Below, in pieces: positions 15,683 through 48,102 of a DNA stretch of 48,102 bases. How positions within the stretch are numbered: position 1 is the stretch's first letter; the number at the start of each line of letters is the position of its first letter. The notes under the pieces are model-generated. The model made no database searches and was not told the origin of the DNA. It was given only the letters and a program-made list of their open reading frames with translations. Made by a program: the position numbers and the translations under genes. This DNA comes from Nostoc sp. CCCryo 231-06 (lineage in GTDB: Bacteria; Cyanobacteriota; Cyanobacteriia; Cyanobacteriales; Nostocaceae): positions 1 through 48,102 of the forward strand of contig JAHCSU010000155.1 of the NCBI GenBank assembly GCA_023522315.1. The letters are read 5' to 3'.

Positions 15683-16234
15683 TTATGGATTTTGTACAAT
15701 GTCAAAACTGACAACAGATGTAGAAGATAGCAAGAACGAGGCTGCTCTTTTTGCTGTGGTTTCAGAAAGCTTAACTTGCTTGAGGTTAACTAGACCTTCA
15801 TTCACAAAAGAATCTCTCACCAAGGCTTTCTCACCGCTATTGAAAGAAGTTTCATAAAACACTTCCTTAATCCCTGCGGAGATAATTAATTTCAAACAAG
15901 ATAGACAAGGTTCTAGGGTGACGTAAATACTTGCACCATCTGTAGAGGTACCATGTTTTGCAGCTTGTGCGATCGCATTTGCTTCCGCGTGTACAGCCCT
16001 TGATGGTAAAGTTTTACTAGCATCACAGCTACTCAATCCTGGATAACAGTAGCCCTGAGCGGTACAATGGGCCGAACCCGATGGTGAGCCATTGTAACCT
16101 GTTGCTACGACCTGCTTGTTTTTCACAATCACAGCACCCACGGGAAAAGCTAAACACGTTGAGCGAGTTGCTGCAAGTTTAGCCAACATTAAAAAGTATT
16201 CATCCCATGTTGGTCTTTGCTCATCACAAACCAT
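15683..16234 (-). CDS. Deoxycytidylate (dCMP) deaminase, ComEB-like
   Basis: 183 residues. Zinc-deaminase signature HAEANAI (~82-88) with the proton-shuttling Glu, and PCLSC (~109-113) as the other zinc ligands; PVGAVIVKNKQVVATGYNGSPSG is the typical dCMP deaminase N-terminal part, and the CTAQGYCYPGLSSCDASK insert may bind a second zinc as in the ComEB type. It converts dCMP to dUMP, the substrate of thymidylate synthase, encoded directly upstream: its ATG overlaps the upstream stop by one base (TAATG at 16232-16236), so the two are translationally coupled. Confidence 0.93.
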   Translation of the reverse strand: MVCDEQRPTWDEYFLMLAKLAATRSTCLAFPVGAVIVKNKQVVATGYNGSPSGSAHCTAQGYCYPGLSSCDASKTLPSRAVHAEANAIAQAAKHGTSTDGASIYVTLEPCLSCLKLIISAGIKEVFYETSFNSGEKALVRDSFVNEGLVNLKQVKLSETTAKRAASFLLSSTSVVSFDIVQNP

Positions 16235-17730
16235 TATTTACTATCCTGAATGTATTTAGTCCCTGTTTTCAAACACTCAGAGGCTCGCTGTAATTCCATT
16301 CCCAAATATCCAACATGATCTGCACGTATTGAAGGCGAAGCAGCACAAATTTCTCTAACTAATTTCAAGGCATCAAAACCTGAATAGCAACCTACAATCT
16401 CACCACTTCCGGGAGTTGTTTGTGTAACAACTATCTCGTTTTCTGCAATCTCAACTAAAAAATTTCCCGCAGGATCGTGGTAATTTATTTTTCTACAAAT
16501 GCGTAGATACTGTTGTTTAATCAGTTGTTCGGCGTTACTCCAAGTATCATCATATATATGAGCCGACTGACTGATGGTAATCAGTGGTCCTATTTTCAAG
16601 TCATACTTAGAACGTTGAACAATTTCATCTCTAATATGTTGTTGCAAAGCCCTCAAGCCCATTGCATTTGCAGGCCATGCAGCAAACATATCATTACTTC
16701 TAAGAGTTGCAGTTAGTGATAATTCATTATCAACCACTCTCAACCAAATATGATTAAGACAAGGGCTACCACCCTTTTCATGGTCTTTTACATCCCATAA
16801 ATTCATCACTGCACTAGCAGCATCAATTTCTCCTATTAATTTCTGAATCACCTGGTCAATTTGATCGCGCCCAAACCAAGAACGTAAACGTTGACCATAA
16901 GTATATTTCAACCCTTCCCGATAAGGTGCATCATCTAAAATCTGCGAAACGTATTCTTCAATAAAAGGGCGGTCAATAGGCAAATAATTCGGCTCAGGAA
17001 AATAAAAGTCAGCAGGCTCATCAGTAATAATTGCCATTAAATCAATTAATTCTTGCCATTGCCCATCATAGCCAGTTGGTCTAATTATTCCTGTTGTCTT
17101 AATCCGATGAATGATTTTTACCCAAGTTTCGGCTATAGTTTTACCTTCTATTCGATGTCCGTAGCGTGGGCCTGGTAAAATAGTTGGTTCAACGATAGAC
17201 ATGGGAAATTCTACAGGCGTTCCCCAAGGATAGAGTGGTTCCAATTCTGCATAAAATAAAACTTGCCTAACTGCCGACTCTATTGATTTGACTTCTTTGC
17301 ACTCTACAGAATGACGTAGTTTTTCTAGCGTATTGATATCAATTTCAATATCAATATAACCAGGAATCGCAGAGCGAATTACCCATGCTCTGCGCCCAGT
17401 ATCACTTAAATTTTCTTCAACACCATTACGGAAAAAATCTAGCAAGCACTCTCCAGCCCCAGCATTCTTGTCTTCTTTCGTAGCATTGAGAACAACTAAA
17501 TAGCGAACGTGGGGATTCAACAGCAAATTGCGAATTAGTAAGTTTATGCCCCTTGTGGGCGAGTATAGTTGCCCAATTACAGCATAATCTTCGGGTTGCA
17601 AGTGTTTAGCGATCGCCTGCTTCACTGTCCACCCTGTAATCACAGCTGTCTGCCCATGTCCATAAATAAGCTGATTGGGCTTGTGTAGTGCTTTGTATTC
17701 AAATTGGGTTGCCTTACCCGTTGCTGTCAT
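16234..17730 (-). CDS. Thymidylate synthase fused to MtrA-like and DUF4346 domains
   Basis: 498 residues in three parts. N-terminal ~1-150 resembles tetrahydromethanopterin S-methyltransferase subunit A (VITGWTVKQAI, SPTRGINLLIRNLLLNPHVRYLVVL). The middle (~190-410) is a divergent thymidylate synthase: YTYGQRLRSWFGRDQID, the nucleophile motif GGSPCLNHIWLRV (~322-334), LTATLRSNDMFAAWPANAMG (matching RSxD..xPxN) and SAHIYDDTW. The C-terminal ~80 residues match DUF4346 (DPAGNFLVEIAENEIVV, DHVGYLGMELQRASE), a domain known beside ThyA. It should methylate dUMP to dTMP, or possibly hydroxymethylate it. First gene of the cassette. Confidence 0.88.
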   Translation of the reverse strand: MTATGKATQFEYKALHKPNQLIYGHGQTAVITGWTVKQAIAKHLQPEDYAVIGQLYSPTRGINLLIRNLLLNPHVRYLVVLNATKEDKNAGAGECLLDFFRNGVEENLSDTGRRAWVIRSAIPGYIDIEIDINTLEKLRHSVECKEVKSIESAVRQVLFYAELEPLYPWGTPVEFPMSIVEPTILPGPRYGHRIEGKTIAETWVKIIHRIKTTGIIRPTGYDGQWQELIDLMAIITDEPADFYFPEPNYLPIDRPFIEEYVSQILDDAPYREGLKYTYGQRLRSWFGRDQIDQVIQKLIGEIDAASAVMNLWDVKDHEKGGSPCLNHIWLRVVDNELSLTATLRSNDMFAAWPANAMGLRALQQHIRDEIVQRSKYDLKIGPLITISQSAHIYDDTWSNAEQLIKQQYLRICRKINYHDPAGNFLVEIAENEIVVTQTTPGSGEIVGCYSGFDALKLVREICAASPSIRADHVGYLGMELQRASECLKTGTKYIQDSK

Positions 17731-39683: not shown

Positions 39684-39814
39684 ACTAAATAAAACTACAT
39701 CATCTTAATTGTATCGTGGCGTTATCAAGGCAAAGTGTGAAGGGGGCATCCCAGTTTTTTGCAAAGAGAGGGAAAATCAGTCATGATAAGTAAGATGAGT
39801 ATATTTACTTACCA

Positions 39815-40024
39815 ATGACCCCAGAACAAAAGCAAGCTCTTCAAGAACATGTTCGAGCGATCGCTAAAATACTATATGAAGATACTTCAGCAGAAAGGCT
39901 AACAAGCCTTGCAGGAATTGAATCGGCAGTGCGAAGTCAAATGCAGAAGCATGTCATGCCAGAAGTAGGGGTTTTTTTATTGATCGCGCGTAAAACCCCA
40001 TCCCCTTGTGAGTGGGGCAGTTGA
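39815..40024 (+). pseudogene. N-terminal remnant of an ISKra4-type transposase
   Basis: 69 codons reading MTPEQKQALQEHVRAIAKIL and then YEDTSAERLTSLAGIESAVRS. This resembles the first ~55 residues of ISKra4-family transposases; then the frame leaves the family at about residue 52 (FLLIARKTPSPCEWGS, with TCCCCTTGTGAGTGGGG repeat sequence) and stops. The rest of the transposase is missing and a helicase gene begins 90 bp on. Based on memory of the family, so moderate confidence. Confidence 0.45.
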
Positions 40025-40114
40025 CTATCTATAATGTTGATCTACAAAACTGCCAGATATAGGTGAACAAACTAGTCTGGAAGGTTCTTTTAATGTGTTC
40101 AGGTGACTGGATCT

Positions 40115-43100
40115 ATGATTAAGCTCGGTTTATTGGTACAGTCCCAGAATAACTCTTTGGGTATAGGAAAAGTTACTGAAATATCTGATACCAATGCGAA
40201 CGTTGAGTATTTTTGCTCCATAGGGCAACGTCTACAAAAAACTTTACCTATAAGTTCGCTCTCTCAAGTCAAGCTTGAACCCCAGGCTCGATGCTATATT
40301 AAGTTTCAAACCCAGGATAAATGGATAGTTGGCAGAGTTTTCATCTGGGATGAAGATACAGAAATGTATCAAATAGATTTACCAGATAAGAAAACTGCGA
40401 TCGCTACTGAAGAAGACATTTACGTTCGTTGTAATCTCCCAAACACAGACCCCATCGAAACTTTGGCGATGAAGGGTCACGAAACACCCTACTTCCACGA
40501 CAAAAGATTGGCTTTTGTCAAATCCTTGATTAAGCAACGCGCTGTCAGTCGCGGGATGACAGGACTGATTTCGGCAAATATTAATCTTTATCCTCACCAA
40601 GTTGAAGTTGTCAGGCGGGTACTGGAAGACCCAATTCAACGCTACTTGCTAGCAGATGAGGTGGGACTCGGAAAAACCATCGAAGCGGGGGCGATTCTGC
40701 GTCAATTCCTTCTGGATGAACCAAAAAAAGGGGCGGTGGTATTAGTTCCGCAATATTTGCTCAAACAATGGCGAACTGAGTTAGAAAACAAGTTTTACAT
40801 TTCCCATTTTGGCAAACGGGTAGCGGTGCTAGCGGTTGAAGATATCCATAAAATCAACCTGAAAGCGAAGATAGGCTGCTTAATTTTAGATGAAGCCCAT
40901 CATATCGCAGCAATGGCAACCTCCAAGGATGCAACAGTACGCCAGCGTTTTCAGACTTGCAAAGAAATTGCTCATAAAAGCGATCGCTTACTTTTATTAT
41001 CTGCCACTCCTGTTCTCAATCATGAGCAAGATTTTCTGGCTATGTTGCACTTGCTCGACCCAACAACCTATAAAATTGGTGATTTAGCAGGTTTTCGTGC
41101 CAAAGTTGAAAGCCGTCAGCAAATTGGTAAAGTTCTGCTTTCTTTTAAAGAAGATGCGGAACCTGTTGTCCTCAAAAGCAACTTGCAGCAACTACGCAAC
41201 CTCTTTGCTGAGGATGAGTCTTTACTGAAGCTGGCGGATGATTTAGAAAATTTACCAGCAAATTCTACTGAGCAAGAGCAAATACTCCAAGCGATTCGCG
41301 TCCACGTCAGCGATATTTATCGACTACACCGCCGAATGCTTCGCAACCGTCGCGCTGCGGTGGAAGATGTCATATTTGACCGCAATTTTACGCCAAAAGA
41401 AGAGTATGATTTAGACGAGCGATCGCTTGATATTCACGAACTGCTCAATCAATGGCGGAGTGTTGCTCCTGCTGAAAAGCAATATCAGCGAATTTTTCTG
41501 TTGTTATTCCTAGCTGCTGGTACTTGGTTAGGCATTTTAGAGCAGGTAATTACCGCCCGGTTAACTGGTAAACCTCATGCTAAACTCATCCAAGAGTTTA
41601 AAGAACATGATATTCGCCTATTAACTACAACCCCCAAATTCTCAGGGGAAGAAGAGATTCTGCAATCCTTCCTAAAAATTATTCGTCAACCTCAAGAAGA
41701 CGGACAACGGACGGAAAATTTGAAAACAGTGCTGCTGAATCAGTTAGGTACATACTTCAAAATTCCCGCAAACGTTCGGAAGAATCAAAAGGAATTCATC
41801 ACGAGGATACAGCAGAGAATCAAGAGACCAATTACTGGCGATATTCTGCCGAAATTTATTGTGTTTACCAGTTTTGTGCAAACTTGTGGCGAAATTGTCC
41901 GCTATTTATCTGATAGCTTTGGTGCAGAGACAGTAGCCAGCCATCAATTTGGAGAATCACCAGATAAGGTTGAGGAAGGTTTAAATAAGTTCAAGAATAA
42001 CCCAAACTGCTTTATTCTAGTATGCGATCGCTCTGGAGAAGAAGGGCGGAACCTCCAGTTTGCCGATTGGTTAATTCATTTTGACCTTCCTTGGTCGCCT
42101 AATCAATTAGAACAGAGAATTGGCAGACTTGACCGCATTGGCAGCAAAATTGGCATCCAATCTAGTGCCTTAATTGGCCCCTACTTGGAAGATAGCCCTC
42201 ACAATGCTTGGTATAAAGTATTAAAAGATGGGTTTGGTATTTTTCAACAATCAATTGCCAGTCTCCAGTTTTATGTAGATGATAAACTTGCAGAATTAGA
42301 AACAGTTTTGTTTCAATCCAGTGCTGCTGGATTGTTAGAGATGATTCCGCCAATTCAAGAGCAAATTGAAGCTGAAATAGCTAAAATTAGCGAACAGAAT
42401 GCTCTAGATGAAATTGATGCAAACGATGAAATTGCCACCGAGTATTTTCAAGATTTAGATAATTACGATGCTTGTCATCTAGAGATGAAACGAGCAATTG
42501 AAGGCTGGATTTGTGACGCGCTGGGATTCAGAGGACTCAATAACCCCGACTCATCAGAGATGCGACGTTATCAACCCTCAACGCGGACATTGGTTCCCAT
42601 AAATGACTTAAAAAACCGTTTTGCTGAGAGTTCCCTAGACCAATTTGGTACTTATAATCGCAGGGTAGCAAACCAGAATGCTGGTATTAAACTCTTTCGA
42701 GTTGGGGAAGGATTTGTTGAAGCACTCTGGAACTATATAAACTGGGATGACCGAGGTGAAGCCTTTGCAATGTGGCGCACTGATGCATCTTGGGACTCTA
42801 AAGAAGGAAAGGAGTGGTTCGGTTTCCAATGCAATTATGTAGTCGAAGCAAATTTAAAAATTGCCAAACAAGTTTTACTAGATAACAAACTAGATAGTTC
42901 ACAATTCAAACACTTGCAGCGACGTGTTGATGCTCTATTTCCGCCAATTATAGAAACTATCTATGTTGATGGTCGCAAGGAGCCAATACGCGTTGTTGAA
43001 GATAAAGCGCTCTTAAGTATCTTGCAACGTCCATATAAAGATAAAAACAACAATCAAGGACGAGATTACAATCTAGCAAAGGAACGCTTAGGAATTATTG

Positions 43101-43423
43101 ACGATTTTGTTGACCCTAGTAAATGGCAAAATTTCTGTTATCAAGTGCGTAACACTTCTTCAGAATTACTCTCCAATCGTCCCGATTTTATTGACTTATG
43201 CCAAAGTTGTGCTAAAGTCGCCGAAAAGAAATTAGCCAATAGAGTAGAACAATTACGCCTGCGTCTAAACCAGCAAAGTTGGGATAATGCATTAGCTGAA
43301 GAATTGAAGATAGAAACTGCTTTAAATGCAGCCATTCTAGAGGGAATTCGCCAGCCTCAGATTAGGCTTGATTCTGTCGGTTTTATTATTGTATCGGGGC
43401 GATCGCTTGTGCAATTTGAGTGA
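40115..43423 (+). CDS. Large SNF2/RapA-like helicase, possibly DpdE-like
   Basis: 1102 residues from the ATG at 40115 (a GTG at 40103 is in frame). N-terminal ~100 residues look like two small beta-barrels, as in RapA. Helicase core: ADEVGLGKTIEAG (Walker A, ~179-191), LILDEAHH (~256-263), LLLLSATPVLNH (~293-304), second lobe FIVFTSFVQTCGEIVRYL, SGEEGRNLQFADWLIHFDLPWSPNQLEQRIGRLDRIG (~655-690). A ~400-residue charged C-terminal extension follows. It is a dsDNA/RNA translocase. DpdE of the 7-deazapurine DNA-modification cluster is a similar SNF2 protein, but no dpdA or other dpd gene is seen here, so that name is not used. First gene of the island. Confidence 0.88.
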   Translation: MIKLGLLVQSQNNSLGIGKVTEISDTNANVEYFCSIGQRLQKTLPISSLSQVKLEPQARCYIKFQTQDKWIVGRVFIWDEDTEMYQIDLPDKKTAIATEEDIYVRCNLPNTDPIETLAMKGHETPYFHDKRLAFVKSLIKQRAVSRGMTGLISANINLYPHQVEVVRRVLEDPIQRYLLADEVGLGKTIEAGAILRQFLLDEPKKGAVVLVPQYLLKQWRTELENKFYISHFGKRVAVLAVEDIHKINLKAKIGCLILDEAHHIAAMATSKDATVRQRFQTCKEIAHKSDRLLLLSATPVLNHEQDFLAMLHLLDPTTYKIGDLAGFRAKVESRQQIGKVLLSFKEDAEPVVLKSNLQQLRNLFAEDESLLKLADDLENLPANSTEQEQILQAIRVHVSDIYRLHRRMLRNRRAAVEDVIFDRNFTPKEEYDLDERSLDIHELLNQWRSVAPAEKQYQRIFLLLFLAAGTWLGILEQVITARLTGKPHAKLIQEFKEHDIRLLTTTPKFSGEEEILQSFLKIIRQPQEDGQRTENLKTVLLNQLGTYFKIPANVRKNQKEFITRIQQRIKRPITGDILPKFIVFTSFVQTCGEIVRYLSDSFGAETVASHQFGESPDKVEEGLNKFKNNPNCFILVCDRSGEEGRNLQFADWLIHFDLPWSPNQLEQRIGRLDRIGSKIGIQSSALIGPYLEDSPHNAWYKVLKDGFGIFQQSIASLQFYVDDKLAELETVLFQSSAAGLLEMIPPIQEQIEAEIAKISEQNALDEIDANDEIATEYFQDLDNYDACHLEMKRAIEGWICDALGFRGLNNPDSSEMRRYQPSTRTLVPINDLKNRFAESSLDQFGTYNRRVANQNAGIKLFRVGEGFVEALWNYINWDDRGEAFAMWRTDASWDSKEGKEWFGFQCNYVVEANLKIAKQVLLDNKLDSSQFKHLQRRVDALFPPIIETIYVDGRKEPIRVVEDKALLSILQRPYKDKNNNQGRDYNLAKERLGIIDDFVDPSKWQNFCYQVRNTSSELLSNRPDFIDLCQSCAKVAEKKLANRVEQLRLRLNQQSWDNALAEELKIETALNAAILEGIRQPQIRLDSVGFIIVSGRSLVQFE

Positions 43424-43448
43424 TATAGTCTCTGCAATAATACTCATG

Positions 43449-43485
43449 CTAACCCCGCCTGCAAAGAGGGGTTAGATGGGTTTTT
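43449..43485 (+). terminator. Probable terminator after the helicase gene
   Basis: CTAACCCC (43449-43456) pairs with GGGGTTAG (43468-43475); ATGGG then TTTTTATT follow. The T-run is displaced by five bases from the stem, so efficiency is uncertain. Confidence 0.4.
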
Positions 43486-43638
43486 ATTCTCGTTATCGTT
43501 CACACTTGTGGTTAAATTAACGTAAGCAGTTGACAATTGCAGCTAAAACTCGTGAGTTAGTTATAATAGGTAGCCTAACGCGTTTGCGTATTTCTACCCA
43601 GTCAATTAAGCCAGAATTATGTTGGTCACTCACAAAAT

Positions 43639-45156
43639 ATGGAGATTCAGATAGTTCTTTACATTTATTCATTTCCCTCGTATCTGCGGGAACAGCCACG
43701 AGTTAAAATTGGCAGAACTTCTGGGAGTATTGATGCTGATCCTAAAGAATTAGCATTGCAGCGCATACGTGGACAGATTAGAACTTCACATGCAGAAGAA
43801 CCAAAATTATTGGGTGCAGTCAAAGTTCCAGGCGAGTGGGTGGAAACAACAATTCATTCCCAATTGAGAATTCAGGGATATCATATTTCAGAAGCACCTG
43901 GAATCGAGTGGTTTAGATTTCCCAATCAAAAAGAATTACAGGATTTCCTAGATAGGATTTATCGAGCTGTAATCATTGATGATTTCTCAGAATTAGGTGG
44001 GGGACGAAGAGATATTGAAGGAGACTCATTCGAGTCTATCGTTTCTGCATTTGGGGTAAGAAAGCTTAGTGGTAGTGAGTTTAGGCGTGAGATAGAATTA
44101 GTCAAAGTCCTTGATGATGAACTATCTCCAATGTATCCAGGCTTTCCCCAATGGTTCGATAGAACAATGAGCAGTTCAGATGCTGTTTTTAACGTAGCTT
44201 ATAGAGATAGACAAGCTATTGGAGTTGCTATTTGGAAGCCGAAAGGGAATGGAATAGCTAAACTATCAACTCTTTTTGTTACTGAGAATTATCGACGTAG
44301 TGGTATCGGAAGAAACTTAATCTTAACTTGTTTTGAGCAATGGAAATCAGAACGAATTAGAAGAGCCTTTGTTACCACAGCCAGAGTCGAACTCGTTAAA
44401 TTCTTTGAACGTTATGGGTTCTGGGTAGAAGGTATAGGGCGGGAAATATACCAACGTAAAGCTCATCAACCGGAATGGTTCTTAACGAAACTATTCTTTT
44501 ACGAATCTGATAAGAGTAGTTTGGACGCAATAAATAAGGCAAAGATTCTATTTCCATCAATAATATCGACTTCTTATAATCCTGCTGGTAGAGAAGAAGT
44601 TGAACAAATTCAGCTTCACGATGCAACAGTTCAGCTAAGTGCTTATAATGGTAGTTTAATTAATCAATTCCCTCTCGATTCTTGGCTAAACTTGACTTAT
44701 CCAGCAGAGTCAGTCTACACTCCTAAAACAGCTTATATTATACCAATTCGCCCTCAATTCTTGATTCAGATATTTCAAGCTGGCAAGACGGTTTACTATG
44801 GACGATGTAGTTGTAAACAAGATGACATGAGAGGATCATTGATATTGTTCTATGCCAGCCATCCTATATCTGGTATAGTAGCGAGCGCCAGAATTGTTAA
44901 TCGATACATTGGAACACCCACTAAACTGTATAGTGATTTCGGTATGAAGGGTGTTCTCACCTTAGAAGAGATCGGTAGTAAGGAACAAGAACGACAGGCT
45001 GTTGAGTTCGACTTCCTAATGCCACTTAGTCAAGTAGTTCATCTAAATGACTTACTCAGTAATGGTGTTCTCAATGGCCCACCACAAGCAATGCACAGCC
45101 TTGGTATAGAACGTTATAGAATAGCCGTTGAACTTGGAGGTTTTTATGCAGGTTAA
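43639..45156 (+). CDS. Three-domain fusion: GIY-YIG-type nuclease, GNAT, ASCH/PUA-like
   Basis: 505 residues. Residues ~1-110 look like a T5orf172/MUG113 GIY-YIG-type nuclease: LYIYSFPSYLREQPRVKIGRTS, ALQRIRGQI, and IEWFRFPNQKEL. Residues ~130-290 are a GNAT domain: VAYRDRQAIGVAIWKPKG and LSTLFVTENYRRSGIGRNLI (acetyl-CoA loop). Residues ~345-505 resemble an ASCH/PUA-like domain: IPIRPQFLIQIFQAGKTVYYGRCS, GSLILFYASHPISGIVASARI. PUA-superfamily domains read modified or unusual nucleobases. I know no named family with this order. The next gene, an ASCH protein, overlaps by 11 nt. Function unknown; a defence role is inferred. Confidence 0.7.
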   Translation: MEIQIVLYIYSFPSYLREQPRVKIGRTSGSIDADPKELALQRIRGQIRTSHAEEPKLLGAVKVPGEWVETTIHSQLRIQGYHISEAPGIEWFRFPNQKELQDFLDRIYRAVIIDDFSELGGGRRDIEGDSFESIVSAFGVRKLSGSEFRREIELVKVLDDELSPMYPGFPQWFDRTMSSSDAVFNVAYRDRQAIGVAIWKPKGNGIAKLSTLFVTENYRRSGIGRNLILTCFEQWKSERIRRAFVTTARVELVKFFERYGFWVEGIGREIYQRKAHQPEWFLTKLFFYESDKSSLDAINKAKILFPSIISTSYNPAGREEVEQIQLHDATVQLSAYNGSLINQFPLDSWLNLTYPAESVYTPKTAYIIPIRPQFLIQIFQAGKTVYYGRCSCKQDDMRGSLILFYASHPISGIVASARIVNRYIGTPTKLYSDFGMKGVLTLEEIGSKEQERQAVEFDFLMPLSQVVHLNDLLSNGVLNGPPQAMHSLGIERYRIAVELGGFYAG

Positions 45157-45646
45157 ACACATCAAAGCTCTAAGCATAAAGCGAATTTACGCTGAACGTA
45201 TTATTGATGGGACTAAAAAAATTGAGTTACGAAAACGCTCAATTGGGATGGAATTAGGTGATCTAATTCTTTTGTACGAAACAACACCTGATTCTATTAT
45301 AAGGGGAGGTTTTGTTGCTGATAAAACTATATCCTTATCTGTCTCAAAGATGTGGAGTAAGTATCACCACATTCTGGGAGTAGACAAAGAGTTTTATGAT
45401 ATATATTTTGAAAATTGTGAATTTGCATACGGCACTTTTATATATCAAAGCTTTCTTTTTCCTTCAATTTCTCTGAAAGAAATACACGAAAGTTGCCATA
45501 ATTTTACACCACCACAAGCCACAATCAACTGGCGTAAAGATTGGTACATTCAGTCCGAATGGATTGATGCACTTAATAAAGGAAGAAATCAGTTAATGCA
45601 GGAAGGAAGACTAAGTGAACAGTTGAGTTTATTTGCATTGCAATAA
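45146..45646 (+). CDS. ASCH-domain protein
   Basis: 166 residues from the ATG at 45146 (GGAGG 5 nt upstream decides this start; a TTG at 45128 is unlikely). Domain signature: IKALSIKRIYAERIIDGTKKIELRKRS (Gly-x-Lys-x-x-Glu-x-Arg), LILLYETTPDSIIRGGFVADK. ASCH domains belong to the PUA superfamily, thought to bind RNA or modified nucleosides; one characterised ASCH enzyme hydrolyses N4-acetylcytidine. Its start overlaps the stop of the GIY-YIG/GNAT fusion by 11 nt, so both are translated together. Cytoplasmic. Confidence 0.85.
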   Translation: MQVKHIKALSIKRIYAERIIDGTKKIELRKRSIGMELGDLILLYETTPDSIIRGGFVADKTISLSVSKMWSKYHHILGVDKEFYDIYFENCEFAYGTFIYQSFLFPSISLKEIHESCHNFTPPQATINWRKDWYIQSEWIDALNKGRNQLMQEGRLSEQLSLFALQ

Positions 45647-45786
45647 ATTAGAGTATATTAATTTTATTCCACTTTCGACGCTAAATGAAATGATCGCAGG
45701 AGCAATTTTGTAGAGTTGACGATTAAACAAATCGTTGTTTAGATTTAAAGCTCATCATTTTTGTTATTTTTTAAGAAATAAACAAT

Positions 45787-46338
45787 ATGGTAAAACGTAA
45801 AATAATTTTCGTCGGTGGAGTGCATGGTGTTGGTAAAACAAACCTTTGTAAAAATATAGAATTAAGATTTAATATCGAACATTTTTCAGCAAGCAATCTG
45901 ATTACTAGAGAAAAGGCAGAGGAACATCTTCGTAATAAACAAGTTGAGAATATTGCCGGAAATCAAGACATTTTAGTAAAATCAATAAACAAGTATCTAA
46001 AAAATGACAATACGTATTTAATTGATGGGCATTTTTGTCTCTTAAACAAGGATAATGAAATCACTAAAATTCCATACTCAACATTTGAAGGTATTTCTCC
46101 TAGTGCTATTATTGTTTTATTTGAGGAACCTGAAAATATCTCTACTCGTTTAAGCTCAAGAGACAGTATTAAACATGATCTACCTCTGCTACGCTCTTTT
46201 CAAGAACAAGAAATTTATTATGCTGAGTACATCAGGGATAAATTAAACATTCCCTATCTAATGTGTAATGCTACTAAGTACGAGGACAAAATATATACTT
46301 TTATTGAAGGTTTAGTGGCTCAACCAGTATCGGAATGA
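45787..46338 (+). CDS. P-loop kinase-like AAA ATPase
   Basis: 183 residues. Walker A GGVHGVGKTNLC (~10-21) at the extreme N-terminus, YLIDGHFCLLNKDNEI (~78-93) as the Walker B-like segment, and IIVLFEEPENISTRLSSRD (~113-131) with basic residues as in the lid of nucleotide kinases. Architecture fits the AAA_17/18-type small nucleotide kinases; the substrate is not recognisable. 140 bp after the ASCH gene with an AT-rich gap. Could be a nucleotide- or nucleoside-kinase effector, or a kinase-type toxin; neither is shown by sequence. Confidence 0.75.
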   Translation: MVKRKIIFVGGVHGVGKTNLCKNIELRFNIEHFSASNLITREKAEEHLRNKQVENIAGNQDILVKSINKYLKNDNTYLIDGHFCLLNKDNEITKIPYSTFEGISPSAIIVLFEEPENISTRLSSRDSIKHDLPLLRSFQEQEIYYAEYIRDKLNIPYLMCNATKYEDKIYTFIEGLVAQPVSE

Positions 46339-46362
46339 AAATTTCCTCAGCCTTATTAGCAT

Positions 46363-46424
46363 AATGAAACGTTCAAATCGTCTTGCTTGGATAGGAGCGA
46401 TCGCTTATGCAATTTGAGTGATAT
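46363..46424 (+). repeat. Composite duplication scar joined at a HIP1 octamer
   Basis: 46364-46404 copies the first 41 nt of the DUF4350 gene (47302-47342) with one mismatch, ending in GCGATCGC. From that same octamer, 46397-46424 copies the 3' end of the helicase gene (43399-43426) with one mismatch, ending after its TGA. The two sources therefore meet exactly at the shared HIP1 site 46397-46404. Confidence 0.85.
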
Positions 46425-46517
46425 TATCTGCGGATAATTTCTTTTGCCTTTCGCAATGTGTCAGCGATCGCCAGAGTTTACAATAGATTTGTACTAGTGT
46501 GAAGCAATCGCTTCAGA

Positions 46518-47096
46518 ATGCTTATGCTAATCCAGTTTCGGTTTCATCCTGAGAAAGCCGTTGAAGCCGCAGCAATACTCTTAAAGCTGCACGGTAAGCC
46601 TATGAAGTATTTAGGCTTACTTAAGATGCTTTACATAGCTGATCGTGTTGCATTGAAACGCATGGAACAACCGATTACTGGCGATCGTTATGTGTCGATG
46701 GATTACGGCCCTGTCTTGAGCGGCGTTTATGACCTAATCAAGGGGAAGCCCGTTGATGATGCCTTACCTCTCTGGTATAAATTCATTTCTCGTCGTGATG
46801 AAAATCATGTTTCCTTGTTGCGCGATCCAGGAGACGAAGACCTTTGTGAAGAGGAAGAGGAAATCATTCAGCAGGTTTATCAAACTTTTGGACATCTTGA
46901 CCCTTTTGAAGTTGCTGAGTGGACTCATGACCTTCCAGAGTGGAAAAACCCTCATGGCTCTGCCATTCCGATTTTGGTAGAGGATATTCTCAAAAATGTG
47001 GGCAAGAGTGACGAGGAAATCGGGAAAATTCAGCAAGAAGCCATTCGAGAAGCATATCTAGATGGGGTTTTGAACAGATTCAGCAAGGTGGTTTAA
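46518..47096 (+). CDS. Panacea (DUF4065/SocA-like) domain protein
   Basis: 192 residues. Matches the Panacea domain of SocA/GepA-type proteins: AAAILLKLHGKPMKYLGLLKMLYIADRVAL (~18-47), PITGDRYVSMDYGPVLSGVYDLI (~52-74), and FEVAEWTHDLPEWKNP (~134-149). Panacea proteins neutralise diverse toxins in toxin-antitoxin pairs and also serve as protease adaptors. The antitoxin's partner is usually adjacent; the gene before it is the P-loop kinase-like protein, separated by the scar, and the gene after it is DUF4350. No classical toxin is recognisable. Confidence 0.85.
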   Translation: MLMLIQFRFHPEKAVEAAAILLKLHGKPMKYLGLLKMLYIADRVALKRMEQPITGDRYVSMDYGPVLSGVYDLIKGKPVDDALPLWYKFISRRDENHVSLLRDPGDEDLCEEEEEIIQQVYQTFGHLDPFEVAEWTHDLPEWKNPHGSAIPILVEDILKNVGKSDEEIGKIQQEAIREAYLDGVLNRFSKVV

Positions 47097-47301
47097 TCTC
47101 CAAGGGGTTGAAAAACAGGTATAAAACGGCTCTGAAAGCTTTCTTGGGAATACTGTAAGATGGCAGAGATCGCAGTCACATATAGAAAGCGCGTAATGCT
47201 GGGAAACTCAGATAAAATTAATTATATTTTTGACTTTACCTGAAAAATAAGTAAGTATTAACACTAATGATCCTGAAACGAAGTGATTATAGTGATCGAA
47301 A

Positions 47302-48102
47302 ATGAAACGTTCAAATCGCCTTGCTTGGATAGGAGCGATCGCACTCGCTGCGATCGTTTTACTGAGTTTGATTGCGGCTCCAAATAATACTAAAATTAAC
47401 ACTGGCTCTACTTATAACCGCGCCTCCGATGGCTATGGTGCTTGGTATGCTTTTATGCAACAGCAGGGAATTTCTATCAAGCGCTGGCAAAAGCCTTTTA
47501 GTGACATTCAGCCAGAGAAAAACCCAGTTACCTTTCTACAGGTAAGCGGCGATCCAAGAGAGACTACACTGGATAGTCAAGAGCGGGAATGGGTAGAAAA
47601 AGGGAATACTTTGGTAATTTTGGGTGCGGGGGCGCGGGTTACAGAAGCGCAGTTTAGCAGTATGCAAAAATCTCCTGAAGGTGATATAAAAATTGATACA
47701 CGTAGACGATATAAAAAAGCTAACTCCCAGCAAGTTAATTTAGGCGATCGCTTTGGTGCTATTGTCTGGGAAGAAAATTACAAACAAGGAAAGGTGATTT
47801 TTTCTACCACTCCTTATTTAGCTGCTAACGCCTACCAAGATTATTTAAGTAATTTCAAGTATTTAGCCAATTTAGTTAATCAAAAAGGTCACACAGTATT
47901 TGTCGATGAATACATCCACGGCTATAAAGATGCCGATGTCAGAAAGAAAGAAAGCGAAGGAGATTTATTTAGTTTTTTTGCTAAAACTCCTGTATTTCCA
48001 ATATTGGTGCAAGTCGGTATCCTACTATTAGTGTTAATTTGGGCGCAGAATCGCCGCTTTGGCAAGCCAGTAGCTTTAGATACACCAGTTGTAGATAACA
48101 GC
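47302..48102 (+). CDS. DUF4350 membrane protein (partial, runs past the window end)
   Basis: The frame is open from ATG 47302 to the last base, at least 267 codons. The product has an N-terminal helix (LAWIGAIALAAIVLLSLIAA, ~7-26), the GSTYNRASDGYGAWYAFMQQQG segment and FSTTPYLAANAYQ, then HTVFVDEYIHGYKD (~199-212), as in DUF4350, and a second helix (FPILVQVGILLLVLIWAQ, ~233-250). In other bacteria DUF4350 genes sit beside MoxR-type ATPases; the sequence beyond is not visible here. The first 41 nt are duplicated at 46364-46404. Confidence 0.88.
   Translation, partial: MKRSNRLAWIGAIALAAIVLLSLIAAPNNTKINTGSTYNRASDGYGAWYAFMQQQGISIKRWQKPFSDIQPEKNPVTFLQVSGDPRETTLDSQEREWVEKGNTLVILGAGARVTEAQFSSMQKSPEGDIKIDTRRRYKKANSQQVNLGDRFGAIVWEENYKQGKVIFSTTPYLAANAYQDYLSNFKYLANLVNQKGHTVFVDEYIHGYKDADVRKKESEGDLFSFFAKTPVFPILVQVGILLLVLIWAQNRRFGKPVALDTPVVDNS

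What the first reader, a model, noticed from the sequence alone, without database searches (positions are those of the whole stretch)
40115..47096. Possible new defence-type island: helicase, GIY-YIG/GNAT/PUA-like fusion, ASCH, kinase, Panacea
Five genes on one strand combine a large SNF2/RapA-like helicase, a nuclease-type domain, two PUA-superfamily (ASCH-like) modules that typically read unusual bases, a small P-loop kinase and a toxin-neutralising Panacea protein. The set is preceded by a transposase remnant and carries a recombination scar. Nuclease plus modified-base reader plus translocase is the recipe of modification-dependent restriction. No named system with this gene order is known to me. 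Defence is inferred from composition and context.
Basis: inference. Interest (0 to 1): 0.75.

Follow-up and report, generated by a model that had tools for sequence, protein, structure and literature searches.

The report
Composite cyanobacterial locus, not one system
The five neighbouring genes are not one new defence system: a long-resident helicase gene, a mobile three-gene module that probably makes a nuclease-acetyltransferase effector with its partner proteins, and a leftover antitoxin-like gene were brought together by recombination in one cyanobacterium.

Summary
The five genes, the transposase remnant and the scar are real. The five-gene "system" is not.
(1) The helicase is DpdE (NF041062, 1100 bits). 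It is an orphan here: searches found no DpdA or DpdF. It is in 53 of 53 genus genomes, under purifying selection.
(2) The GIY-YIG/GNAT/ASCH gene, the ASCH gene and the kinase form a genuine mobile module, next to dpdE in 3 of 13 distinct loci. It is a variant of the published (PIN)-GNAT-EVE + ASCH + AAA_17 operons, with GIY-YIG where PIN is usual.
(3) Panacea belongs to another allele of the dpdE-DUF4350 gap; its partner gene is truncated here.
(4) The scar looks like a crossover inside GCGATCGC (46397-46404) between a module-bearing and a Panacea-bearing allele. Both alleles occur singly in relatives.
New details: 16 of 16 close cyanobacterial copies of the small ASCH protein end in QLxL[FL], like the sliding-clamp-binding consensus (distant copies lack it). 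The effector gene is broken in 4 of 13 loci; the ASCH gene is whole in all 13. Best reading: a toxin-antitoxin-like nuclease-acetyltransferase module beside an unrelated, domesticated DpdE. Function is untested.

The parts
39815..39979 (+). N-terminal remnant of an ISKra4-family transposase gene, inside a stretch (39741-40018) that differs between genomes of the genus
   Evidence: 89% identity over residues 1-55 to an annotated ISKra4 transposase on a Nostoc plasmid; in 14 of 15 genus loci compared both flanks align and the middle does not; in the 15th only the right flank aligns
40103..43423 (+). Orphan dpdE: RapA/SNF2-type translocase, core gene of the genus, not part of a Dpd system here
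   Evidence: NF041062 1100 bits, cut-off 500; 53 of 53 genus genomes; no DpdF at E<=1e-60 or DpdA at E<=1e-20 in the genome; dN/dS 0.09-0.13; helicase motifs intact in the window copy and in 29 of 29 genus loci held
43639..45156 (+). Module gene 2: GIY-YIG (T5orf172, about 1-110), GNAT (about 150-280), C-terminal ASCH/PUA-like domain (about 365-500); proposed effector
45128..45646 (+). Module gene 3: stand-alone ASCH protein with C-terminal QLSLF tail; proposed antitoxin/recruiter
   Evidence: DUF3850; ZmASCH by profile E=3.4e-24 and by fold, TM 0.71; overlaps gene 2; tail in 16 of 16 close cyanobacterial copies, in 0 of 14 distant ones
45787..46338 (+). Module gene 4: small P-loop kinase (AAA_17, NMP-kinase-like)
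   Evidence: AAA_17 63.5 bits; in 9 of 13 module loci
46363..46404 (+). Scar, left part: copy of the first 41 bp of the DUF4350 gene and the base before it (as in the module-bearing allele)
   Evidence: 98% identical to 47301-47342; 46301-46404 aligns without a break to the allele of G265 (L178), 86.5%
46397..46433 (+). Scar, right part: copy of the dpdE 3' end; both parts overlap exactly in GCGATCGC 46397-46404, the inferred crossover
   Evidence: blastn to window 43399-43426 and to L180/L181
46518..47096 (+). Panacea (SocA-like) gene whose downstream partner ORF is truncated
   Evidence: PF13274 99.5 bits; partner ORF of 130-131 aa present in G230, G253, G257, G259, G269; about 308-312 bp missing at about 47074 in the window
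47302..48102 (+). DUF4350 gene, the far border of the variable gap (cut by the window end)
   Evidence: PF14258 95.8 bits; homologue in 49 of 53 genus genomes; within 8 kb of dpdE in 23 of those 49

Best explanation
The locus is a composite. (a) dpdE is a resident, orphan RapA-type SNF2 translocase gene of the genus; in this genome it does not belong to a 7-deazaguanine (Dpd) restriction system and probably acts alone on DNA or RNA polymerase. (b) A mobile three-gene module lies after it: gene 2 is a GIY-YIG nuclease-GNAT acetyltransferase-ASCH effector, gene 3 is a separate ASCH protein that controls or aims it, and gene 4 is an accessory nucleotide-kinase-like protein. The most likely working mode is a toxin-antitoxin-like conflict module: the ASCH domains recognise a (modified) nucleic acid, GNAT acetylates and GIY-YIG cuts, and gene 3 holds the effector in check. 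In the cyanobacterial version gene 3 is probably tethered to the replication clamp by its QLxL[FL] tail, so the target is likely newly copied DNA. (c) Panacea belongs to a different allele and its partner ORF is truncated. (d) The two alleles were joined by a crossover at GCGATCGC. Shown by calls: composition, distribution, absence of DpdA and DpdF at the thresholds used, the two single alleles and the junction sequence. Inferred: the crossover itself, domestication, and every biochemical step.
For: dpdE core and orphan. Module conserved without dpdE. Alleles and scar. Published relatives of the module: PMC7641849 passages. ASCH structural relative that binds nucleic acid and weakly cuts ssRNA: PMC5615036 passages; fold match. 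QLxL[FL] tail in 16 of 16 close cyanobacterial gene-3 proteins, against 1 of 986 other ORFs. Gene 2 broken in 4 of 13 loci (stop, TnpB insertion, truncation, frameshift) with gene 3 whole in all 13.
Against: No assay exists. The tail is judged against a consensus that I recall; 14 of 14 distant gene-3 relatives (5 in the same genus, 8 Bacteroidota, 1 viral) lack it. The ZmASCH residues Lys53 and Ser128 are not conserved in gene 3, so RNase activity cannot be carried over. The broken-gene asymmetry is 4 to 0, too few to be firm, and one of the four is a metagenome assembly. The gene 2 model is good only for about residues 1-110 and 140-210 (overall pLDDT 56). T5orf172 is only just over its cut-off in the window copy (20.7, cut-off 20; 22.7 to 29.4 in three relatives). 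Strict helicase-motif patterns II, III or VI are missing in 9 of 19 other orphan rows of the tree, all 9 outside the genus, so not every orphan DpdE is plainly an active ATPase.
Confidence: 0.72

Rival explanations
1. One reading: the five genes act together as one modification-dependent restriction system (translocase + nuclease + modified-base readers + kinase + Panacea).
For: All five lie on one strand within 7 kb; gene 2 joins a nuclease domain to an ASCH-like domain; dpdE and the module are adjacent in 3 of 53 genus genomes.
Against: dpdE occurs without the module in 50 of 53 genus genomes; in 10 of 13 module loci no dpdE lies in the stretch examined; Panacea is beside the module only in the window and its own partner ORF is truncated; the junction looks like a recombination product.
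Confidence: 0.05
2. The module is a modification-dependent (type IV-like) DNA restriction system on its own: the ASCH domains read a modified base, GIY-YIG cuts that DNA, and GNAT alters the base or the protein.
For: Nuclease-reader fusion; EVE-nuclease fusions, GIY-YIG included, are described as predicted modification-dependent enzymes in PMC7641849 (section 9); the clamp-like tail points to DNA.
Against: GNAT is not part of that recipe as I know it; relatives carry a PIN-like domain (PIN_3 under its cut-off in 3 of 7 Bacteroidota partners scanned), which points to RNA; neighbours are not a clear defence island.
Confidence: 0.25
3. The module acts on RNA: GNAT acetylates (aminoacyl-)tRNA or cytidine and the ASCH proteins bind or remove the mark, as a tRNA-directed toxin-antitoxin pair.
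For: PIN-like domain in relatives (weak) and frequent PIN in the published class; ZmASCH acts on ssRNA; YqfB, an ASCH protein, hydrolyses N4-acetylcytidine (abstract in listing) and its fold is similar (TM 0.46).
Against: QLxL[FL] tail on gene 3 suggests DNA replication; ZmASCH Lys53 and Ser128 not conserved.
Confidence: 0.25
4. Orphan DpdE is the last remnant of a decaying Dpd island rather than a domesticated gene.
For: DpdE is normally an island gene, and island and orphan copies interleave on the tree; some orphans outside the genus lack strict motif II, III or VI patterns.
Against: 53 of 53 genus genomes keep it; dN/dS 0.09-0.13; motifs whole in 29 of 29 genus loci held; island copies in G245 and G252 are second copies next to dpdF.
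Confidence: 0.12

Closest known systems
(PIN)-GNAT-EVE operons with ASCH and AAA_17 (Bell et al. 2020, PMC7641849; passages and section 9 seen)
   Same: GNAT fused to a C-terminal PUA-superfamily domain, N-terminal nuclease in many, second ASCH gene, often an AAA_17 gene; predicted toxin-antitoxin/defence
   Different: N-terminal nuclease is GIY-YIG (T5orf172), not PIN; the C-terminal domain matches ZmASCH chains; gene 3 carries a QLxL[FL] tail. The paper mentions GIY-YIG-EVE fusions, but the passages seen do not name GIY-YIG-GNAT-EVE; its supplements were not read
PADLOC PDC-M11 (PDC-M11A + PDC-M11B), a candidate defence pair
   Same: Gene 2 matches PDC-M11A (52.9 bits) and gene 3 matches PDC-M11B (72.4 bits)
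   Different: The gene 2 match covers its GNAT and ASCH parts; the first 120 positions of the PDC-M11A profile align with the stretch of a Bacteroidota partner (L168) where L167 shows its PIN_3 match, not with GIY-YIG
Dpd system (7-deazapurine in DNA), protein DpdE
   Same: dpdE is a full-length member over the curated cut-off
   Different: No DpdA and no DpdF found in the genome; stands alone
ZmASCH of Zymomonas mobilis (PMC5615036, passages seen; PDB 5guq)
   Same: Closest solved relative of gene 3 and of the gene 2 C-terminus; the binding Tyr47 aligns with the invariant Y50
   Different: Lys53 and Ser128 are not conserved in gene 3; the match ends at chain residue 141 of 149, before the gene-3 tail
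SocA/Panacea antitoxins
   Same: Panacea domain
   Different: Partner ORF truncated in the window; scores far below the SocA equivalog cut-off (23.6, cut-off 190)

Membership tests
Dpd (7-deazaguanine) modification-restriction system | DpdE protein | tested here: met
   NF041062 1100 bits
Dpd (7-deazaguanine) modification-restriction system | DpdA transglycosylase in the genome | tested here: not met
   NF041059: no match at E<=1e-20 in the own genome; over cut-off in 5 of 76 dpdE genomes
Dpd (7-deazaguanine) modification-restriction system | Restriction partners (dpdF and on) beside dpdE | tested here: not met
   DpdF at E<=1e-60 in 15 of 76 dpdE genomes, not in the own genome, where 12 of 17 candidates were scored; DpdG-DpdK were not searched genome-wide
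(PIN)-GNAT-EVE/ASCH operons | GNAT fused to a C-terminal PUA-superfamily domain | tested here: met
(PIN)-GNAT-EVE/ASCH operons | N-terminal PIN domain (frequent, not universal in the class) | tested here: not met
   T5orf172/GIY-YIG instead; GNAT-EVE proteins without PIN also belong to the published class
(PIN)-GNAT-EVE/ASCH operons | Second ASCH gene in the operon | tested here: met
   gene 3 follows gene 2 in 13 of 13 GIY-YIG-type loci
(PIN)-GNAT-EVE/ASCH operons | AAA_17 ATPase nearby (often) | tested here: met
   9 of 13 loci; AAA_17 63.5 bits
Modification-dependent (type IV) restriction | Nuclease joined to a modified-base reader | tested here: met
   domain architecture only
Modification-dependent (type IV) restriction | Cleaves only modified DNA | not testable with these tools
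   needs an assay
Type II toxin-antitoxin | Overlapping two-gene operon, toxin lost more easily than antitoxin | tested here: inconclusive
   genes overlap; gene 2 broken in 4 of 13, gene 3 in 0 of 13
Beta-sliding-clamp binding protein | QL[SD]LF-type peptide (consensus recalled) | tested here: met
   QLSLF in the window; QLxL[FL] in 16 of 16 close cyanobacterial copies, 0 of 14 distant ones; binding itself not testable here
SocAB/Panacea toxin-antitoxin | Intact partner gene | tested here: not met
   about 308-312 bp missing at about 47074 relative to five relatives

The most novel reading that the evidence does not exclude
The module is a replication-clamp-tethered nucleic-acid modification and cleavage device: gene 3 rides the sliding clamp, and with gene 2 (GIY-YIG-GNAT-ASCH) it inspects, acetylates and cuts freshly copied foreign or damaged DNA. 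Beside it, DpdE has been domesticated into a stand-alone core translocase across a whole cyanobacterial genus.
Probability: 0.22. Interest if true: 0.75.

Novelty: new variant of a known kind. Interest (0 to 1): 0.48.

Why it matters
It removes a false five-gene system and replaces it with two sharper questions. Why does a whole genus keep a restriction helicase (DpdE), nearly always without the DpdA and DpdF partners? And does a GNAT-ASCH conflict module use the replication clamp to find its target? Both can be tested directly in laboratory strains. The dpdE-DUF4350 gap also shows how crossovers at the GCGATCGC repeat can assemble gene strings that look like designed islands.

Tried and rejected
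Rejected: one five-gene system (distribution). Rejected: a Dpd system with DpdA and DpdF in this genome. Rejected: simple tandem duplication as the cause of the scar, because the sequences before the two DUF4350 starts differ and each side matches a different allele.

Led nowhere: gene 2 in viral contigs (no relative); gene 3 in viral contigs gave one relative, with a gene upstream that has no GNAT match (L175). Fold search with the gene 2 model filled its list with GNAT chains, so the GIY-YIG and ASCH parts were not tested by fold. Defence-gene neighbours: 82 neighbour proteins (ORFs of at least 100 aa) of 10 loci, L157-L166; 40 PADLOC families matched at E<=1e-15, 25 shown, 16 of them PD-T4-6 kinase models matched by one member each; mad3 and PDC-S17 matched 2 members each, PDC-S03 and PbeA 1. 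No control set of neighbours was run. A GNAT-motif pattern in the script was badly written and returned nothing; it was not used.

Papers: one hit for 'DpdE' with '7-deazaguanine'; the passages seen of two papers do not describe orphan dpdE. The search for an ASCH clamp link listed 10 of 48 papers, none with an ASCH occurrence. The search for GIY-YIG with GNAT, EVE and PUA listed 5 papers, of which one (PMC7641849) holds all four terms; of it I saw passages and one section.


Full report
What is in the sequence. Five + strand ORFs lie at 40103-43423, 43639-45156, 45128-45646, 45787-46338 and 46518-47096. I call them dpdE, gene 2, gene 3, kinase and Panacea. The first is DpdE: NF041062 1100 bits against a cut-off of 500, and the best PADLOC hit is DpdE, E=3.7e-241. 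It is RapA-like in sequence (RapA equivalog 206 bits, under its cut-off of 576; PDB RapA chains E 5e-34 to 5e-33). Gene 2 has T5orf172 (20.7 bits, cut-off 20) and GNAT domains and a C-terminal ASCH-like domain (PDC-M11B models; ZmASCH chains by the family profile). Gene 3 is DUF3850 (26.4 bits, cut-off 22.9) with ASCH under its cut-off, the kinase is AAA_17 and the fifth is SocA_Panacea. Residues 1-55 of the ORF before dpdE are 89% identical to an ISKra4 transposase.

The five do not belong together. In 53 genomes of the genus, dpdE DNA was found in 53 of 53 (in G229 only as a fragment at a contig end), but the stretch covering gene 2, gene 3 and kinase only in the window, G228 and G265 (its list is cut at the weak end). 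A protein search with gene 3 in the same 53 found those three close copies and five distant ones of 25-33% identity. Those five sit beside a gene that resembles the Bacteroidota partner (29-31%), cut by the end of the locus held; three of those pieces had no Pfam match. In 224 genomes of the order, dpdE (E<=1e-100) was in 25, and gene 2 at E<=1e-3 in 27, many of these only generic GNAT-sized matches. Gene 2 relatives with a gene 3 beside them were in G000, G017, G045, G108, G032 and G058. G045 has both dpdE and gene 2, about 0.63 Mb apart. In 386 genomes of the phylum, gene 2 at E<=1e-15 was in 6, one of which (G343) has the other type of GNAT partner.

DpdE is an orphan here. Over the 76 genomes that gave dpdE (53 genus genomes and 23 others), DpdF at E<=1e-60 was in 15 and DpdA over its cut-off in 5; the own genome gave neither. 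The other dpd genes were not searched genome-wide. In the genus, DpdF occurs only in G245 and G252, and there beside a second, diverged dpdE. Outside the genus, 13 of 23 dpdE genomes have dpdF and 10 do not. On a tree of 35 DpdE proteins the orphan and island labels need 8 changes, 6 of them forced by well-supported branches; 13 of 500 shuffles were as low for the orphan label and 11 for the island label. The states have therefore changed repeatedly; the tree does not say in which direction. Some rows there are partial or on long branches. DpdE dN/dS in the genus is 0.09-0.13 in 6 comparisons and 0.10-0.13 in 2 comparisons in another genus. Walker A, DEAH and motif VI are intact in the window copy and patterns I, II, III and VI are present in 29 of 29 genus loci held. 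Over the 19 other orphan rows of the tree, pattern I is in 19, II in 13, III in 13 and VI in 12; strict patterns can miss variants, but some orphans outside the genus may have changed ATPase motifs. Named plasmids show the same two states: a dpdE-dpdJ string in Nostoc sp. C057, and single dpdE genes in Nostoc NIES-3756 and Trichormus variabilis. So in this genus an orphan DpdE is kept by selection. What it does is not shown; a RapA-like translocase role is my inference from its homology.

The scar. The gap between dpdE and the DUF4350 gene (PF14258) is variable. The two genes are within 8 kb in 23 of the 49 genus genomes with DUF4350, on one contig but farther apart in 9, and on different contigs in 17. 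G230, G253, G257 and G259 hold Panacea plus a partner ORF of 130-131 aa, then DUF4350. In the window, 46301-46404 aligns without a break to the first allele (86.5%), and from 46397 to 47074 it follows the second (for example L180), with a short stretch missing at 46433; the two matches overlap in GCGATCGC at 46397-46404. The simplest account is a crossover in that octamer between the two alleles. That the octamer is an abundant cyanobacterial repeat (HIP1) is recalled. The same 63-71 bp junction recurs in G228, G254, G264 (twice) and G269, so this has happened repeatedly or spread. The Panacea partner ORF is truncated in the window: 308-312 bp are missing at about 47074 relative to five relatives.

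The module. G108 and G032 are nearly identical to each other. Gene 3 follows gene 2, whole or broken, in 13 of 13. The kinase follows in 9 of 13, not in G017, G045, G108 or G032. dpdE is present in 3 of 13 and Panacea in 1 of 13, within the flanks held. Three further cyanobacterial loci (L163-L165) have a convergent GNAT gene whose N-terminus is not GIY-YIG; it looks PIN-like to me but Pfam found no PIN there. Eight Bacteroidota loci have an upstream gene of about 690 aa (one, L171, cut by its contig and not scanned): GNAT in 7 of 7 scanned, and PIN_3, under its cut-off of 27 bits, in 3 of 7, there after the GNAT domain. Gene 2 is broken in G017 (stop), G045 (TnpB insertion), G058 (5' truncation) and RU_5_0 (frameshift, a metagenome assembly); gene 3 is whole in all 13. 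That fits gene 2 as the costly partner, but four events are few. dN/dS of the window copy against relatives is 0.13-0.20 for gene 2 (4 comparisons), 0.11-0.14 for gene 3 (3) and 0.21-0.32 for the kinase (3).

This is a known class. Bell et al. 2020 (PMC7641849; passages, and section 9) describe GNAT-EVE proteins, often with PIN in front, in operons that almost all have a second, ASCH, gene and often an AAA_17 ATPase. They predict toxin-antitoxin or defence roles and say none of the modules had been experimentally characterised. The window's module has this layout with GIY-YIG in place of PIN. The text mentions GIY-YIG-EVE fusions, so a GIY-YIG-GNAT-EVE may already be in its supplements, which I could not read.

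Verdict. The five-gene defence system is not supported. A three-gene module of a known predicted class, in a new variant, is supported. An orphan core DpdE beside it is the more surprising find. The function of both is open.

Noticed in passing
G228 (L179 8027-8095), G254:C201 (L186 5350-5414), G264:C141 (L187 5859-5929 and 6842-6912), G269 (L184 6997-7059): The 63-71 bp DUF4350-start/GCGATCGC/dpdE-end junction recurs in other genomes, twice in one, between different cargo genes: a recurrent cargo-exchange site between dpdE and DUF4350.
   Followed up: partly
L057-L059, L062-L064, L070 (genus g11): A second long-lived orphan dpdE clade (7 rows, full support), with similar flanking genes in the two loci examined (L092, L093); strict motif II, III or VI patterns are missing in 5 of the 7.
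   Followed up: partly
L013 14673-21309 (Trichormus variabilis plasmid A): Orphan dpdE directly follows a CyRepA1-family plasmid replication gene.
   Followed up: no
L203-L207: Five genus genomes carry a separate, distant ASCH gene beside a gene that resembles the Bacteroidota partner; no Pfam match in the three pieces scanned.
   Followed up: partly
L077 11214-12398: A TnpB gene splits gene 2 in G045.
   Followed up: no
L182 6553-6945 and relatives: Unnamed 130-aa ORF overlapping the Panacea gene by 8 bp, found in five genomes, no Pfam match in the one scanned; a possible Panacea partner.
   Followed up: partly
window 16234-17730: Protein with a thymidylate synthase domain and a C-terminal DUF4346 domain.
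   Followed up: no
L175 5261-6405 (viral contig): ASCH gene of the gene-3 family after a 236-aa gene without a GNAT match.
   Followed up: no
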